Shown: in pieces, positions 2,441 through 10,468 of the stretch | How the letters are laid out: each line of letters opens with the position of its first letter | Position numbering within the stretch: position 1 is the stretch's first letter | Origin: a virus | Reading direction: 5' to 3' (one strand) | Length of the DNA stretch: 64,000 nt | IMG/VR virus record: IMGVR_UViG_3300037247_001239 | Location: 1-64,000 of that record | The notes under the pieces: model-generated | Seen by the model: only the letters and a program-made list of their open reading frames with translations | What the model was told of the DNA's origin: nothing | The model's database searches: none | Program-made: the position numbers and the translations under genes

Positions 2441-3304
2441 CTATTCCTTTCCAAATAAGAGTTTCCAAATTTCGGGATTTCCTTTGTCGTACTTCACGCG
2501 ATTGGCCAATGTACGACTCTTGGCCAAATGGGTTGGTAGTTGTGTCGGGTAAATGCTGCGAGTACCCGTACCTTGTGCCTTGCCGTCCTCGTTAACGGCG
2601 GTGTCGTAGCCGATGAACAGCAAATGGTCGCACCACTCCTGCACTCGCGACCGCAACTGGCCGGTGTTTTTTGGTTGCTGTAATCGGTGTTCGTAGCGCA
2701 ACCAGTCTTCGCCGCCAGGATTGGGGACTGTCACGACGCAATCGTGGCACACACCGATAACGTGCTTGCCTGCACGCACCAGGGCATCGAGATCACCCAG
2801 GATTTGCAAAAACGTCTCGTAGACGTGGGTGTAGCCTTTGCCAAAGCCATAGCCCTCGACAGACTTCACAAATTGCCCCTTTTCGTGTTTGACGTTGGCC
2901 AGTGTCCACGTCACGGCAAAATCCTGTAGGGTTGTGAACGAGTCCACCACCACGGCGTCGTATCGCCCCGTCAATCCTCGGTCATGCAGCACGGCTCGCA
3001 CATCCTCAAACGTGCGGGGAATTATTCGATCCACGTCGAGGAACTTACTGGACTCTTCCACGTCAACAAACAAAGGAACAATTTGCACCTGCGTCAATAG
3101 CGAACACAGTTCGGTCTTACCGATACCGCCCGTACCGTAGACCACAATCCGTTGGGCACCGCGGCTGACCCCCGTCTCCACTTCCAGACGGTTCGGCTGA
3201 ATCCCTTCCGTTCCCGTAGGGACAGGACCCATTGGTCCCGTAGGCTTAGACGGCTGCGTGACGGGCGACGGCTTGGTCGCCATCGGCCCGGTAGGTTTAC
3301 TCAT
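2441..3304 (-). CDS. Sak4/AAA_24-type RecA-like ATPase
   Basis: 287 residues. A disordered N terminus carries repeated TGPM segments. Walker A is GTGGIGKT at residues 57-64 and a Walker B-like YDAVVVDSF lies near 114-122. The length and the pattern after Walker B fit the AAA_24 family, whose phage members (Sak4) are RecA-core ATPases that promote single-strand annealing or recombination with a phage SSB. The SSB-like gene directly downstream and the PD-(D/E)XK nuclease directly upstream support this. Start at 3304 overlaps the nuclease stop by 8 bases. Confidence 0.8.
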   Translation of the reverse strand: MSKPTGPMATKPSPVTQPSKPTGPMGPVPTGTEGIQPNRLEVETGVSRGAQRIVVYGTGGIGKTELCSLLTQVQIVPLFVDVEESSKFLDVDRIIPRTFEDVRAVLHDRGLTGRYDAVVVDSFTTLQDFAVTWTLANVKHEKGQFVKSVEGYGFGKGYTHVYETFLQILGDLDALVRAGKHVIGVCHDCVVTVPNPGGEDWLRYEHRLQQPKNTGQLRSRVQEWCDHLLFIGYDTAVNEDGKAQGTGTRSIYPTQLPTHLAKSRTLANRVKYDKGNPEIWKLLFGKE

Positions 3305-4172
3305 CAGAAAGTCCTTTCAGTTCGGGATGAACATTCGATACAAACTCAAACCCCTCTGGCGCCACACCAGAGGACAAATCGGTCTTGCTGCTACATAAGC
3401 CGAAGTAGCTGCAAAATCCGCACGTATCGCGGGTAACGGTCCTGTACCACCGATTGTTTCGCTGTGCCTCGCGTAACGTCTTCTGAATGTCCCACAGTTC
3501 CGCTCGGCACTCCTCAATCTCCTGGTCCAGTCGTGGTATCTCCACGCGGGCGTAGTAGAAATCGGGCCGCTTGGCAATGTCGTCGATGATTCGCTGACTC
3601 CACTCGTCGGGCGTCATCGGTCTGGACTGGAGGACGTAGCTTTTGGCGGTGTCGCCTGTTTGGCGGGGCATACCATCTTTTTTCAACACGCGCTGACCGT
3701 CGGCATTCAGCACTATTTTCAGCCCAGTCCTATCCAGTAACGGCACCCTCGTCGGCTTGATGCTGGGTTTGCGAATCACGTCGTAAAACACCGTACTTAC
3801 ATCGTGGCCGAGTTCCCTTGCCGCATGGACGTAGATGGAGATTTGCAGGTCGTTCTGAAGGCGAAGCCAATAGTCGCTACCCAATGCCAAATCCTCGGAG
3901 GCGGTCTTGTGTTCCATCACGGCAAGTCGGCTGTCTTCCATCCGCACGATGCCGTCGATGACGCCAGCCAATTCGAAGAGCTGCGACGGTTTGCCCGTCG
4001 CGGGATTTCGCAACGGCAATCGAAACGACTGTTCGGTGGCGATTACCTTCAATTTGGAAGCACCCCATCGCCAGTCGTAGCCACTCAACAGGGCCGCCAC
4101 CATAGCACGTTCGTATTGCCACTCCAGGTCAGTCGTATGCTCGGCAAGCGATGGCGATTGCATCCTTGACAT
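3297..4172 (-). CDS. RecB/Cas4-like PD-(D/E)XK nuclease, C-terminal main part (frameshifted)
   Basis: 291 codons are open from ATG 4172. They carry the catalytic core of a RecB/AddB/Cas4-type nuclease: VIDG with Asp73, MEHK with Glu87 and Lys89, and a Q-rich LQNDLQ helix. Three cysteines near the C terminus (251, 254, 260, in CGFCSYFGLC) belong to a 4Fe-4S cluster. The N-terminal His motif and the fourth cluster cysteine are missing here but present in the adjacent ORF at 4129-4332 in another frame. The two therefore look like one exonuclease gene, broken or frameshifted near 4130. It probably processes DNA ends for the Sak4-like annealing system. Confidence 0.8.
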   Translation of the reverse strand: MSRMQSPSLAEHTTDLEWQYERAMVAALLSGYDWRWGASKLKVIATEQSFRLPLRNPATGKPSQLFELAGVIDGIVRMEDSRLAVMEHKTASEDLALGSDYWLRLQNDLQISIYVHAARELGHDVSTVFYDVIRKPSIKPTRVPLLDRTGLKIVLNADGQRVLKKDGMPRQTGDTAKSYVLQSRPMTPDEWSQRIIDDIAKRPDFYYARVEIPRLDQEIEECRAELWDIQKTLREAQRNNRWYRTVTRDTCGFCSYFGLCSSKTDLSSGVAPEGFEFVSNVHPELKGLSDE

Positions 4173-6296: not shown

Positions 6297-6704
6297 TTAG
6301 CCGGTAGGCAGCAACGTTCCGTAGTGGCGTTTCTTGTGGCATGACCGACAAAGCCATTGCACATCGTCGGAACTATAATCCTCGTGATGACCCTCAATCC
6401 TTGCTGTCCTTCTGCATACACTGCATTGCTTTGGCCGGACCTTTTTGCCCTGCTTCAGCGCTTCGGCAAGACGCGAAGCAGCAGCCTTCTTTACTTTCGG
6501 GTCTTCTTCAAATGAGATATTCCTATCGTTCAGCACTTTAGCCCCTGCCCTCGCGCTGCATGAGTACCTGCAATACTTTCCCTTTCCTCGTTTCAATTCA
6601 GAGAGGGATACCCAGAAAGATGTGCCGCAGCCAATGCACCTTTGCTTAACACAACGAAATCGACGCGAATCTCGCTTAAGTGTACGACCACCAGAATCAA
6701 TCAT
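6297..6704 (-). CDS. HNH-like zinc-finger endonuclease or DNA-binding protein
   Basis: 135 residues from ATG 6704 after GGAAAGGAAACAC. Two cysteine clusters are visible: CIGC...CRYSC in the N-terminal half, and CSVC...IEGHHEDYS...WLCRSCHKKRH in the C-terminal half. The second is the beta-beta-alpha metal layout of small phage HNH-type proteins (GHHxDY and CxxCH). It may be a free-standing homing-type nuclease or an inactive DNA-binding relative. Confidence 0.65.
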   Translation of the reverse strand: MIDSGGRTLKRDSRRFRCVKQRCIGCGTSFWVSLSELKRGKGKYCRYSCSARAGAKVLNDRNISFEEDPKVKKAAASRLAEALKQGKKVRPKQCSVCRRTARIEGHHEDYSSDDVQWLCRSCHKKRHYGTLLPTG

Positions 6705-6762
6705 CAGTGTTTCCTTTCCCAACCGCCCGCCGTGCTTTCGCGGGGCAGGCCACCTCGCTTGT

Positions 6763-6880
6763 AAAGTGCCCCCGACAGGAATCGAACCTGCCTCGCTTGC
6801 CATTGTTACGACGGAATCGAACCGCCAGCGGGGAATGTCCCATGGCCAACAAGGGCGTCATAGGGGCCACCTCCCAGGAC
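6763..6880 (-). other. Two orphan tRNA T-arm-like hairpins (degenerate tRNA remnants?)
   Basis: Two perfect T-arm look-alikes lie on the minus strand, at 6775-6791 and 6810-6826. Each has a TTCGATT loop on a five-pair stem (one with a wobble), the same loop as in the tRNA at 6955-7027. I could not build a full cloverleaf around either: the acceptor pairing GCCCC/GGGGC exists but the spacing (about 100 nt) is too long. They may be remnants of tRNA genes. Confidence 0.3.
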
Positions 6881-6954
6881 CCCGTTGCAACGCTCCTTTC
6901 GTTCGTCCCTCTGCTGCACGCAGACAGGAACCGCACCATTGCGGCCGTTGCAAG

Positions 6955-7027
6955 TGCCGGGCCGTGGAATCGAACCACGATTACTGGCTTATGAGACCAG
7001 CGAGATCACCAGACCTTCCCACCCGGT
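6955..7027 (-). tRNA. tRNA-Met (anticodon CAU)
   Basis: 73-nt cloverleaf on the minus strand. Anticodon stem CTGGT/GCCAG with loop CTCATAA gives anticodon CAT. T-arm CGTGG-TTCGATT-CCACG is perfect. The acceptor ACCGGGT/GCCCGGC pairs six of seven, with an unpaired A1-C72, and the D-arm is weak (one mismatch). CCA is not encoded. The 1:72 mismatch recalls initiator tRNA, but the anticodon stem lacks the three consecutive G-C pairs of initiators, so initiator, elongator and Ile2 cannot be separated by eye. Confidence 0.72.
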
Positions 7028-7361: not shown

Positions 7362-7595
7362 TCACTTAGGTTGGTGCGCTTTGCGGGCAGCGGGCGGGCC
7401 GGAATCGACAGCCGACTTGAGCTTCCTCAGTCTCAACCCGCTGGGTACCAAACGGCTCACGCCGCTGGCCTTGAGCGTTACCCCTGTGAGTGCGTGTCCT
7501 TCCACGCCGCCGCCCGCCGCCCGCAAAACGCACGAATGAAACAGGACGCGCCGGCCGTCCGTTGCCGGCACGCCGGGGTAGATGGTTCGCTTCAT
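7362..7595 (-). CDS. Hypothetical basic protein at the edge of the 35-bp array
   Basis: 77 residues from ATG 7595 (a GTG nine bases further out is also open). Basic and Gly/Val-rich with no recognised motif. The start codon sits two bases from the first repeat block, so the block GAGTGAACC occupies the place of the ribosome-binding site. Anything bound to the repeats would be expected to affect this gene. Moderate confidence that it is coding. Confidence 0.4.
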   Translation of the reverse strand: MKRTIYPGVPATDGRRVLFHSCVLRAAGGGVEGHALTGVTLKASGVSRLVPSGLRLRKLKSAVDSGPPAARKAHQPK

Positions 7596-7596
7596 G

Positions 7597-7706
7597 GGGT
7601 TCACTCGCCACCTTCAGACTCTCTGACTTCTCGGTTCACTCCTCTGCCGCAGACTCTCCGTGCCATCGGTTCACTCATTTCCCACAGACTCTCACTAACC
7701 GCGGTT
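7597..7706. repeat. Left part of the 35-bp phased repeat array
   Basis: Three CAGACTCTC blocks at 7615, 7650 and 7685, exactly 35 bp apart. They alternate with CGGTTCACTC blocks at 7597, 7632 and 7667; a truncated cggtta at 7702 overlaps the stop codon of the ParB-like gene. The 8-bp stretches between blocks are not conserved. It is the same element as the large array at 8469-9091, on the other side of the ParB-like gene. Confidence 0.9.
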
Positions 7707-8442
7707 AGTATTTGCGGACCATCGCCTTGATCTTCTCGAACCTTGCCGCCTGCTCCGCGTCGGCCAGGTCAATGGTCTTGCACTCCAACACGGCAAGGAA
7801 CGCATCCATTATCTGGAGGTTGTCGCGTTGCGTGAGCGGTCCACCTTTCTGTAATGCCAGTTTGGCTGAGGCCGAACCGGCACAGCAGTCCAGGGCTTTT
7901 TTCAGCACGCCAATAAACTTGCCGTTTACGCGGCGGTAGCTGCGGCTCTCCTTCTTCGGTGGCTCGCCCTTCTTGGGTTTCATCTCCGCCAGGCCCTCGA
8001 CAACCCGCGTGAGAATCAACCTCTCCAGCGTGACCGGGTCCATGCACAATATCTTGCTGATGCGCTTCAGGCTGTAGCCCTGCTGCTTCAGCCGATAGCC
8101 AATCCAGGCTTTGTCGCCGGGGTCCAGTTGCCGACCGTGCCTCGCGTTCAGTTCGACTGACTTTGCGAACCACTGCTTTTCGGGAAGCTTCAGAATCTCG
8201 GCCGCAATCTTCGTCTGCTTGGCCTTGCGGTGGATGAGGTAACGGTGTCGGCCGTCCAAACTCAGGAATGGATAGGGTCGTTTTGTCACCCTCACCAGTG
8301 CAATGGGCGGAAAGTTTGCACCCTGCTGGTAGGCATCCCAGTACTGGTTGACGGTAAACCAGTTGGCGTCGGCGTTCACCCGCGGGTAATACGCCGCCTC
8401 GAATCCGATATCGTCAAGCGGAATCATCGTGATTTCCGGCAT
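7705..8442 (-). CDS. ParB-like DNA-binding protein
   Basis: 245 residues from ATG 8442 after AAAGGAGAATGTC. The N-terminal half has the ParB/sulfiredoxin layout: IPLDDI strand, a PPIALV strand, then SLDGRHRYLIHRKAK, matching the DGxHRxxA phosphate-binding motif (Asp63-Arg67). Residues about 97-145 (ELNARHG..LDPGDKAW..YRLKQQGYSLKRISKILCMDPVTL) form a KorB/ParB-type helix-turn-helix. ParB proteins bind clustered sites and often use CTP to spread. This gene lies between two blocks of the same 35-bp repeat, the natural candidate for its binding site. It could act in partition, replication control or transcription regulation. Confidence 0.82.
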   Translation of the reverse strand: MPEITMIPLDDIGFEAAYYPRVNADANWFTVNQYWDAYQQGANFPPIALVRVTKRPYPFLSLDGRHRYLIHRKAKQTKIAAEILKLPEKQWFAKSVELNARHGRQLDPGDKAWIGYRLKQQGYSLKRISKILCMDPVTLERLILTRVVEGLAEMKPKKGEPPKKESRSYRRVNGKFIGVLKKALDCCAGSASAKLALQKGGPLTQRDNLQIMDAFLAVLECKTIDLADAEQAARFEKIKAMVRKY

Positions 8443-8468
8443 GACATTCTCCTTTTGTAAGGTGTCAG

Positions 8469-9091
8469 AAAAACACTCGCATTTCGCAGACTCTCGGTTC
8501 TTCCGGTTCACTCTCACTCGCTATGGTTTACTCACGTGCGTCAGACTCTCTGCGGTCGCGGTTCACTCACCTGTGACAGACTCTCGGTAGTTCCGGTTCA
8601 CTCCGGCCTCCCAGATTCTCTATGAGCACGGTTCACTCGCGGTGGTCAGACTCTCCCCGCCGTCGGTTCACTCCGCCCCCACAGACTCTCGCTCGTTGCG
8701 GTTCACTCGTTGATCCCAGACTCTCGAAGAGCACGGTTTACTCCTTTCTTGCAGACTCTTCCCTCTCTCGGTTCACTCCGATGCGTCAGACTCTCACTCG
8801 TTGCGGTTCACTCACTTGTGACAGACCCTCGGCCGTTCCGGTTCACTCACAGCCAACAGGCTCTCAGCGATCACGGTTCACTCAGCCCGGTCAGACTCTC
8901 AGGAACGTCGGTTCACTCTCTTCCACAGACTCTCGCAGGAGACGGTTTACTCTCTTGGCGCAGACTCTCGGCGCTTGCGGTTCACTCCAGTCTGACAGAC
9001 TCTCGGTTTTCGCGGTTTACTCAAGTGCTTCGGATTCTCAATGGAAGCGGTTCACTCGAGCTTTGCAGACTCTCGCCGATGTCGGTTACTC
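8469..9091. repeat. Main 35-bp phased repeat array (16 regular units plus one irregular)
   Basis: The conserved block CAGACTCTC begins at 8542, 8577, 8612, 8647, 8682, 8717, 8752, 8787, 8822, 8857, 8892, 8926, 8961, 8996, 9031 and 9066. All spacings are 35 bp except one of 34. A second block, CGGTTCACTC, starts 17 bp into each unit. The two 8-bp gaps vary freely. An irregular unit at 8487 has an extra ggtttactc half-site at 8525. Because 35 is not a multiple of three and the gaps are free, this is not coding. Iteron, centromere (parS-like) or operator function is inferred. Confidence 0.95.
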
Positions 9092-10267
9092 CTCCCCATA
9101 CAAATGTTTCAGGGAATATCCCTCATACTCCCCTGGCCAGAGCGGCGGCTGAATCAAGTGTGCGTGTTGCTTGCCGTCCGGATGCTCGAAGATGAAGGGC
9201 GCCGGCGGCTCCTTACCCCAATACTCCCGGTACATGACGTGATGCAAATGAGACAAAAACAGCTTCACCGCCCACCGCCGGGCTCGAAAGTAAATCTGCT
9301 GCGGGGGCAACATCGGGACGCCGCTACCCGGCTGACCCTTGGGAATCTCGTCGTAGCCGTCGCCCTTCTTGGCGCAGGCCCGCACGACCTTGGGAACATA
9401 GCAACCGGACTTCCACGCATAGGCAGATGTGGCCTTGCCGACGCGATTCTCCCGCAGCCCTTGGGCAGCGTACTCCGAAAACTCGCCCGCAAGGTTCTGC
9501 TGCCACAAAGCCGCTTGCTTCTCCCACAGCAACCGCCCGTAGAAACACTTCTCCCGGTTCTTATTTTTGTTGAACGATTCGCCCAGGTGACCCAGGCAGA
9601 TCGTCTTCAACCGGCCATTGTAGGGACGGACGGAGAAAAACTTTACCAGCCCCTTGCTACCCTTCTCTGGAGCTTCTTCCTTGATGGCGTAGCCGTCGGT
9701 CCACACGCTTTGCAGCCTGACCCATTTCTGGCCGCTCCACTCCGACAGCTCTGTAATCTGCTCGTCGGTAATGGTGTCATCAATCCCAAGTTCCTTCAGT
9801 TTCTTTTGTGCGAGTTTACTGCCAGGCCACTTGAGGCTAGGGTCCAGCCCACCGAATCTCCAGATACCTCCTACCGTGGGCGCCTTGCGAATGTCGATGG
9901 TCGCAAGCAGGCCCGCCGAGATCACCGGCCCGATTCCGGTCTGGGCCAACATCCAGCGGCCAACAGCATAGCTCTTGGCAAACTCCGCCAAGAACCCTTT
10001 GATCGTGGCCTCCAGCCTGGACTCAGTGCTCTCCATCCATTCGATAAGCTCGTACGGTTCGCCCGCTAACTTTTCTGTCCTACCCTGGTGTGCGGCCCTG
10101 ATTCGCGCCCGTTGGAATGAGTAATACCTGTCCGTCAGGTAACGGGCGCCGGCGATCGAAATACCAGCCACCTTCCGTTTCAGTTCCCGCGAAAGCATCA
10201 CGGCAAAGTCACTTTCGCCGTTGCGGTCCGCGTCTTCAGGTGGGGCAGCTTCACAAACCTGCGACAT
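9086..10267 (-). CDS. Helix-hairpin-helix protein related to the IS110/IS116 transposase C-terminal domain
   Basis: 393 residues from ATG 10267 after ACAGGAGATTCCC. After an N-terminal helical, arginine-rich segment comes LAQTGIGPVISAGLLATIDI (residues 108-127) and IWRFGGLDP. Further on is NGRLKTICLGHL. These are the HhH and following elements of the Transposase_20 domain of IS110-family enzymes. The RuvC-like DEDD catalytic domain that precedes this in real IS110 transposases is absent, and a ~200-residue extension follows. It is therefore probably a DNA-binding protein of phage origin rather than a mobile element. Its stop codon lies within the last repeat of the 35-bp array. Confidence 0.65.
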   Translation of the reverse strand: MSQVCEAAPPEDADRNGESDFAVMLSRELKRKVAGISIAGARYLTDRYYSFQRARIRAAHQGRTEKLAGEPYELIEWMESTESRLEATIKGFLAEFAKSYAVGRWMLAQTGIGPVISAGLLATIDIRKAPTVGGIWRFGGLDPSLKWPGSKLAQKKLKELGIDDTITDEQITELSEWSGQKWVRLQSVWTDGYAIKEEAPEKGSKGLVKFFSVRPYNGRLKTICLGHLGESFNKNKNREKCFYGRLLWEKQAALWQQNLAGEFSEYAAQGLRENRVGKATSAYAWKSGCYVPKVVRACAKKGDGYDEIPKGQPGSGVPMLPPQQIYFRARRWAVKLFLSHLHHVMYREYWGKEPPAPFIFEHPDGKQHAHLIQPPLWPGEYEGYSLKHLYGEE

Positions 10268-10438: not shown

Positions 10439-10468
10439 AGAATAGCAGACAGGCCACTTTCCCGTCAA
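10439..10468 (-). promoter_or_regulatory. Sigma70-type promoter for the leftward early operon
   Basis: Minus strand TTGACG (10468-10463), 18-bp spacer, TATTCT (10444-10439). It is about 170 bp upstream of the first leftward gene and back-to-back with the rightward promoter at 10521, so this is a divergent control region. Confidence 0.6.

What the first reader, a model, noticed from the sequence alone, without database searches (positions are those of the whole stretch)
7597..9091. 35-bp two-block repeat array flanking a ParB-like gene
About 20 units of CAGACTCTC - 8 bp - CGGTTCACTC - 8 bp repeat at an almost invariant 35-bp period, three on one side of the ParB-like gene and sixteen regular ones on the other. 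The gaps vary freely, so selection acts only on the two blocks, which alternate at 17-18 bp. That is the signature of a densely packed protein-binding array: iterons of an origin, a centromere, or operators. ParB-like protein is the natural ligand, yet the site is unlike a classical palindromic parS. It could be a new phage partition, copy-control or silencing system made of array, ParB-like protein and HhH protein.
Basis: partly seen in the sequence, partly recalled or inferred. Interest (0 to 1): 0.87.

Follow-up and report, generated by a model that had tools for sequence, protein, structure and literature searches.

The report
Phage TIGR-Tas guide-RNA locus with ParB
The repeat array is a TIGR array, a chain of about 20 small two-part guide RNAs used by an RNA-guided DNA-binding protein (TasA) that the phage encodes next to it, so it is a clear new member of the TIGR-Tas family described in 2025 and not a set of DNA sites for the ParB-like protein.

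Summary
On the minus strand, GAGTGAACCG-N8-GAGAGTCTG-N8 repeats with a 35-nt period, 17 units at 8474-9091 and 3 at 7597-7709. The interpretation as protein-binding DNA (centromere, iterons, operators) is wrong.

The 'HhH protein' (9086-10267, minus) is a Tas protein. It passes the curated NCBIfam model TIGR_Tas_endo (E=4.7e-32). A 58-member family profile finds the TasR and TasH structures (7e-27, 1e-17). Its AlphaFold model (pLDDT 89) matches TasH and TasR best of all solved structures. It has no nuclease domain, so it is a TasA. Dual-repeat arrays of 34-38 nt lie beside 132 of 146 viral relatives, on the tas strand. None of these loci encodes a detectable relative of this ParB-like protein.

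The blocks are edge and loop repeats and the freely varying gaps are guide spacers. The arrays begin and end in truncated edge repeats, as published arrays do. A ParB-like gene in a tasA operon with arrays between and after the genes is the published tasParB arrangement (PMC12045711).

Most likely the array is processed into about twenty ~35-nt tigRNAs that direct TasA to DNA without cutting. I found no targets. New member of a known kind; the role of ParB remains open.

The parts
9086..10267 (-). tasA: 393-aa Nop-domain Tas protein without nuclease domain (the 'HhH protein'; weak IS110 C-terminal-domain hit in Pfam)
   Evidence: NCBIfam NF052498 TIGR_Tas_endo 4.7e-32, above cut-off; profile to TasR 9mty 7.4e-27 and TasH 1.2e-17; Foldseek top 9 hits are all TasH/TasR
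8474..9091 (-). TIGR array 1: 17 units, edge repeat GAGTGAACCG, spacer A (8 nt), loop repeat GAGAGTCTG, spacer B (8 nt); starts with truncated edge repeat GAGTAACCG over the tasA stop, ends with truncated GAGTG
7705..8442 (-). tasParB candidate: ParB-like protein of 245 aa (ATG at 8442 after AAGGAG; longer GTG start at 8517 possible), boxes PR / DGRHR / ELNARHGRQLDPGDKA and a helix-turn-helix
   Evidence: phrog_1033 ParB-like E=2.8e-5, HTH_38 weak 0.008; weak similarity (E~0.1) to ParB-like proteins of enterobacterial phages
7597..7709 (-). TIGR array 2: 3 units, starts with truncated edge ACTAACCG over the tasParB stop, ends with edge repeat GAGTGAACCC
7694..7709 (.). 16-bp perfect palindrome ACTAACCGCGGTTAGT formed by the truncated edge repeat and the first spacer of array 2; meaning unknown
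   Evidence: only copy in the window with up to 3 mismatches
7545..7574 (-). terminator-like hairpin (11 pairs, 9 GC) followed by T-rich tail, just after array 2
   Evidence: number of such sites in the region is not above chance; its position is what published TIGR arrays show
10439..10468 (-). weak sigma-70-like promoter match upstream of tasA
   Evidence: 1 found, 0.8 expected by chance

Best explanation
This is a TIGR-Tas locus of a tailed phage, subtype tasA with a ParB-like gene and dual-repeat arrays. tasA, array 1, the ParB-like gene and array 2 lie head to tail on the minus strand and are probably one transcript ending at the hairpin after array 2 (inferred). By analogy with the published systems, the transcript is cut inside each edge repeat into about twenty ~35-nt tigRNAs, each with half an edge repeat, spacer A, the loop repeat, spacer B and the other half edge repeat (inferred). 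A TasA dimer would hold one tigRNA by the matched ends of edge and loop repeat (GAG...CCG and GAG...CTG, the box D and box C equivalents). The two 8-nt spacers would pair with opposite strands of a 16-bp DNA target. As this Tas lacks HNH or RuvC, the complex should bind and bend DNA rather than cut it, blocking transcription or replication, or serving as an RNA-addressed platform for the ParB-like partner. Shown here: membership in the Tas family, the array anatomy and family-wide co-occurrence. Not shown: transcription, processing, targets, the role of ParB.
For: Curated family model TIGR_Tas_endo met by the window protein and matched by all 58 aligned relatives. Profile and structure matches to TasR and TasH. 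A 34-38-nt dual-repeat array beside 132 of 146 viral relatives, shuffled maximum 0.47 against a threshold of 0.5. Edge repeat GAG[CT]GA[AG]CC[AG] and loop repeat GAGAG[AT]ACC[AG] in relatives match the window's blocks. Edge motif on the tas strand 1731 times against 90 on the other. The last base of edge and loop repeat agrees in 94 of 102 loci, and does here (G/G). The characterised Salicola phage CGphi29 locus, read here, shows the same layout: AAGCGAGCCA-N8-AAGACAACCA-N8 at 36 nt after its tas gene. Published definition including the tasA-tasParB operon (PMC12045711).
Against: No expression data. Period is 35 and not 36 nt, because the loop repeat is one base shorter; 10 of the 132 relatives also have 35. 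No self-target in the phage's own record beyond chance and no targets in the other fetched loci. No relative of this ParB-like protein beside other tas genes in the fetched loci, so its membership in the system rests on gene order and the published precedent only.
Confidence: 0.94

Rival explanations
1. Protein-binding DNA array (iterons, centromere or operators) bound by the ParB-like protein: the first reader's view.
For: ParB-like gene lies between two parts of the array; regular spacing.
Against: The same array type accompanies tasA relatives in 132 of 146 viral loci, without any detectable relative of this ParB. Arrays are strand-locked to tas. Blocks are asymmetric and the two repeats covary in their ends as RNA box C/D motifs do. 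The neighbour is a Tas protein.
Confidence: 0.02
2. Remnant or derivative of an IS110 insertion sequence with its bridge-RNA region.
For: The protein hits Pfam Transposase_20 weakly (0.025) and PHROG 'transposase' (8e-16); IS621 matches the family profile at 5e-6.
Against: No DEDD/RuvC domain; profile and fold are far closer to TasR and TasH; IS110 has one bridge RNA, not a 20-unit array; curated Tas model met.
Confidence: 0.01
3. A TIGR-Tas locus in which the ParB-like gene is an unrelated passenger inserted within the array.
For: No relative of this ParB in 159 fetched tas loci; array 2 looks like the continuation of array 1.
Against: The published survey reports parB-like genes in tasA operons with arrays upstream, downstream and between; here both genes end on an edge repeat and are co-directional.
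Confidence: 0.2

Closest known systems
TIGR-TasA with tasParB (Faure et al. 2025, Science, PMC12045711)
   Same: Solo Nop-domain Tas protein, parB-like gene in the same operon, dual-repeat arrays with ~10-nt repeats between and beyond the two genes
   Different: Loop repeat 9 nt so unit 35 nt; sequence relation of this ParB-like protein to the published TasParB could not be tested (supplement not available here)
Salicola phage CGphi29 TIGR-TasH (HQ634153)
   Same: Array of two alternating 10-nt repeats with 8-nt spacers beside a tas gene
   Different: TasH carries an HNH nuclease; repeats AAGCGAGCCA / AAGACAACCA; 36-nt unit
TIGR-TasR (PDB 9mty)
   Same: Same Nop fold and family profile (7e-27)
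   Different: RuvC nuclease domain absent here; TasR repeats carry UG...CCA
IS110 / IS621 bridge-RNA recombinase
   Same: Distant homology of the C-terminal RNA-binding domain
   Different: No DEDD domain, array instead of a single bridge RNA
ParB-parS partition and plasmid iterons
   Same: ParB-like protein encoded next to repeats
   Different: Repeats are asymmetric RNA-type repeats on the coding strand; same arrays exist without ParB

Membership tests
TIGR-Tas | Nop-domain Tas protein of the Tas clade | tested here: met
   NCBIfam NF052498 above cut-off; profile 7e-27 to TasR; Foldseek
TIGR-Tas | Array of two distinct alternating 8-12-nt repeats (edge, loop) with ~8-12-nt variable spacers | tested here: met
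   10-nt and 9-nt repeats, 8-nt spacers, 20 units
[quoted passage not shown]
   GAGTAACCG/ACTAACCG at starts, GAGTG and GAGTGAACCC at ends; terminator-like hairpin at 7545-7574 only suggestive
TIGR-Tas | Box D / box C ends shared and covarying between edge and loop repeats | tested here: met
   GAG...G in both repeats here; last base agrees in 94 of 102 relatives
TIGR-Tas | Array processed into ~36-nt tigRNAs bound by Tas | not testable with these tools
   needs RNA sequencing
TIGR-Tas | tigRNA-directed tandem-spacer DNA binding | not testable with these tools
   no targets found computationally
TasA (nuclease-free Tas) | No HNH or RuvC domain | tested here: met
   Only a weak Transposase_20 match, none at 0.01 for the 393-aa protein; about 40 residues before the Nop core
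tasParB-tasA operon | parB-like gene co-directional with tasA, arrays up/downstream or between | tested here: met
   gene order in window; published description
tasParB-tasA operon | Sequence relation to published TasParB; C-terminal dimerisation; CTPase fold | not tested
IS110 | N-terminal DEDD/RuvC-like domain with catalytic residues | tested here: not met
   no Pfam match to it; N-terminus too short
ParB-parS / iteron array | ParB-dependent presence of the repeats | tested here: not met
   132 loci with arrays, none with a detectable relative of this ParB

The most novel reading that the evidence does not exclude
TasA and the ParB-like protein act together: tigRNAs choose the DNA address and the ParB-like protein loads or spreads there, giving an RNA-programmed centromere or silencing site carried by a phage.
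Probability: 0.15. Interest if true: 0.85.

Novelty: new member of a known kind. Interest (0 to 1): 0.42.

Why it matters
It places an anonymous repeat array in the TIGR-Tas family and shows how common such loci are in phages (494 stretches encoding a relative in one viral-collection scan). This locus has 20 guides, and the tasA-ParB subtype has no known function, so it is a compact test case for what nuclease-free Tas proteins and TasParB do. If ParB is recruited by guide RNA, that would be a programmable partition or silencing mechanism.

Tried and rejected
(1) Chain of 12-codon mini-ORFs joined by GTGA overlaps (35 nt = 36 - 1): rejected, because spacer bases that create in-frame TGA are not avoided (read by eye). 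(2) ParB-binding centromere or iterons: rejected. (3) Remnant IS110: rejected. (4) Self-targeting: spacer A followed by the reverse complement of spacer B, gap 0-2, up to 2 mismatches: 5 hits against 3.9 in shuffled-spacer controls; other geometries also near chance. (5) 3,058 spacer pairs from 102 loci against 1.2 Mb of phage DNA: no convincing excess once near-identical loci are counted once. (6) Array growth by block duplication: units 8 and 15 share 13 of 16 spacer bases, but a block duplication is only weakly supported (p=0.03). (7) Direct searches for the window's proteins and motif in viral contigs gave nothing until a multi-sequence alignment was used. (8) Single-sequence fold was useless (pLDDT 34); alignment-based fold was good. 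(9) Relatives of the ParB-like protein: none found in viral contigs or at E<1e-3 in phage records.

Full report
Observation. The array is real. On the minus strand the unit is GAGTGAACCG-N8-GAGAGTCTG-N8, 35 nt, with 17 units at 8474-9091 and 3 units at 7597-7709. The record is a 74,578-base virus contig; a combined motif has 18 matches, all here and all on the minus strand, with none for the reversed control. Array 1 begins on the stop codon of the upstream gene and array 2 on the stop codon of the ParB-like gene; both end in altered or truncated GAGTG repeats.

What the neighbouring proteins are. The 'HhH protein' first looked like a piece of an IS110 transposase, but a search of solved structures returned a Tas protein, TasR (9mty), and TasH. 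That led to TIGR-Tas (PMC12045711). The membership is firm: the curated model NF052498 TIGR_Tas_endo is met at 4.7e-32 and matched by all 58 relatives aligned. The family profile reaches TasR at 7.4e-27, TasH at 1.2e-17 and IS621 only at 5e-6. The AlphaFold model built from that alignment (pLDDT 88.7, pTM 0.86) has the TasH and TasR structures as its first nine matches, all with probability 1.00. TM-scores are moderate (0.36-0.42 by the query), probably because this protein has a helical insert and the known ones carry nucleases (inference). There is no HNH or RuvC domain, so it is a TasA. The second protein is ParB-like by PHROG profile (2.8e-5), with the sequence boxes typical of ParB N-terminal domains (read directly) and a helix-turn-helix.

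Family evidence that array and tas belong together. Two viral-collection scans with alignments gave 146 viral loci with a TasA relative, and 13 more came from bacterial and archaeal genomes. A period search finds a 34-38-nt array in 132 of the 146 viral loci (101 with 36 nt, 10 with 35 nt); shuffled loci never reach the threshold. The consensus repeats are GAG[CT]GA[AG]CC[AG] and GAGAG[AT]ACC[AG] in most, the window's blocks being GAGTGAACCG and GAGAGTCTG. The edge motif is found 1731 times on the tas strand and 90 times on the other. The last base of the two repeats agrees in 94 of 102 loci, as expected if both are held by a symmetric protein dimer. The characterised Salicola phage locus and a Microcystis phage locus, read with the same tools, show the same layout.

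Why it is not a ParB-binding array. None of the fetched tas loci encodes a detectable relative of this ParB-like protein, yet the arrays are there. The repeats are asymmetric, strand-locked and begin and end in truncated edge repeats as the published RNA arrays do. [quoted passage not shown] The window shows that arrangement.

How it most likely works. By the published mechanism, each unit gives a tigRNA starting and ending within an edge repeat; spacer A pairs with one DNA strand and spacer B with the other. From the reported 8-nt 3' overhangs I infer that the target reads spacer A followed by the reverse complement of spacer B. TasA would bind and bend the target without cutting. What the phage uses it for is unknown: own-genome targets are at chance level and no targets stood out in 1.2 Mb of other phage DNA. 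The function of TasA-type systems and of tasParB is stated as open in the paper.

Departures from the type. The unit is 35 nt because the loop repeat has 9 bases; one unit has lost its loop repeat; there are 20 units where 5-15 are usual. Array 2 begins with a 16-bp perfect palindrome at the parB stop codon (7694-7709), unique in the window, whose meaning I could not test. None of these makes a new kind of system.

Verdict. It is a new member of a known kind, TIGR-TasA with a tasParB-like gene. Interest is moderate: the identity is settled, while the function of this subtype is an open question for which this locus is a good test object.

Noticed in passing
L085:3944-6055 and L090:4025-6163: Two viral tasA genes carry an intein with a LAGLIDADG domain; in L085 it sits at the conserved LKVLC|CWK site of the Nop domain.
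   Followed up: partly
window 7694-7709: 16-bp perfect palindrome ACTAACCGCGGTTAGT at the stop codon of the ParB-like gene; a possible ParB site or a hairpin at the start of array 2.
   Followed up: partly
window 7371-7397 and 7510-7536: 27-nt inverted repeat arms (89% complementary) 112 nt apart, between array 2 and the tRNA-Met gene.
   Followed up: no
window 6297-7027: HNH endonuclease gene (6297-6803) and a tRNA-Met gene (6954-7027) downstream of the locus.
   Followed up: no
L010:5616-5944: Microcystis phage Mvi-JY20 (PP438412) has an unannotated dual-repeat array (ATGCGAGCC / ACGAAACCC, 36 nt) just after a tas gene annotated as hypothetical protein.
   Followed up: partly
window 2441-4172: Neighbouring Sak4-like ssDNA annealing protein and exonuclease genes, a phage recombination module.
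   Followed up: no
L047:3570-6682: A phage locus with about 59-62 array units, the longest seen here.
   Followed up: no
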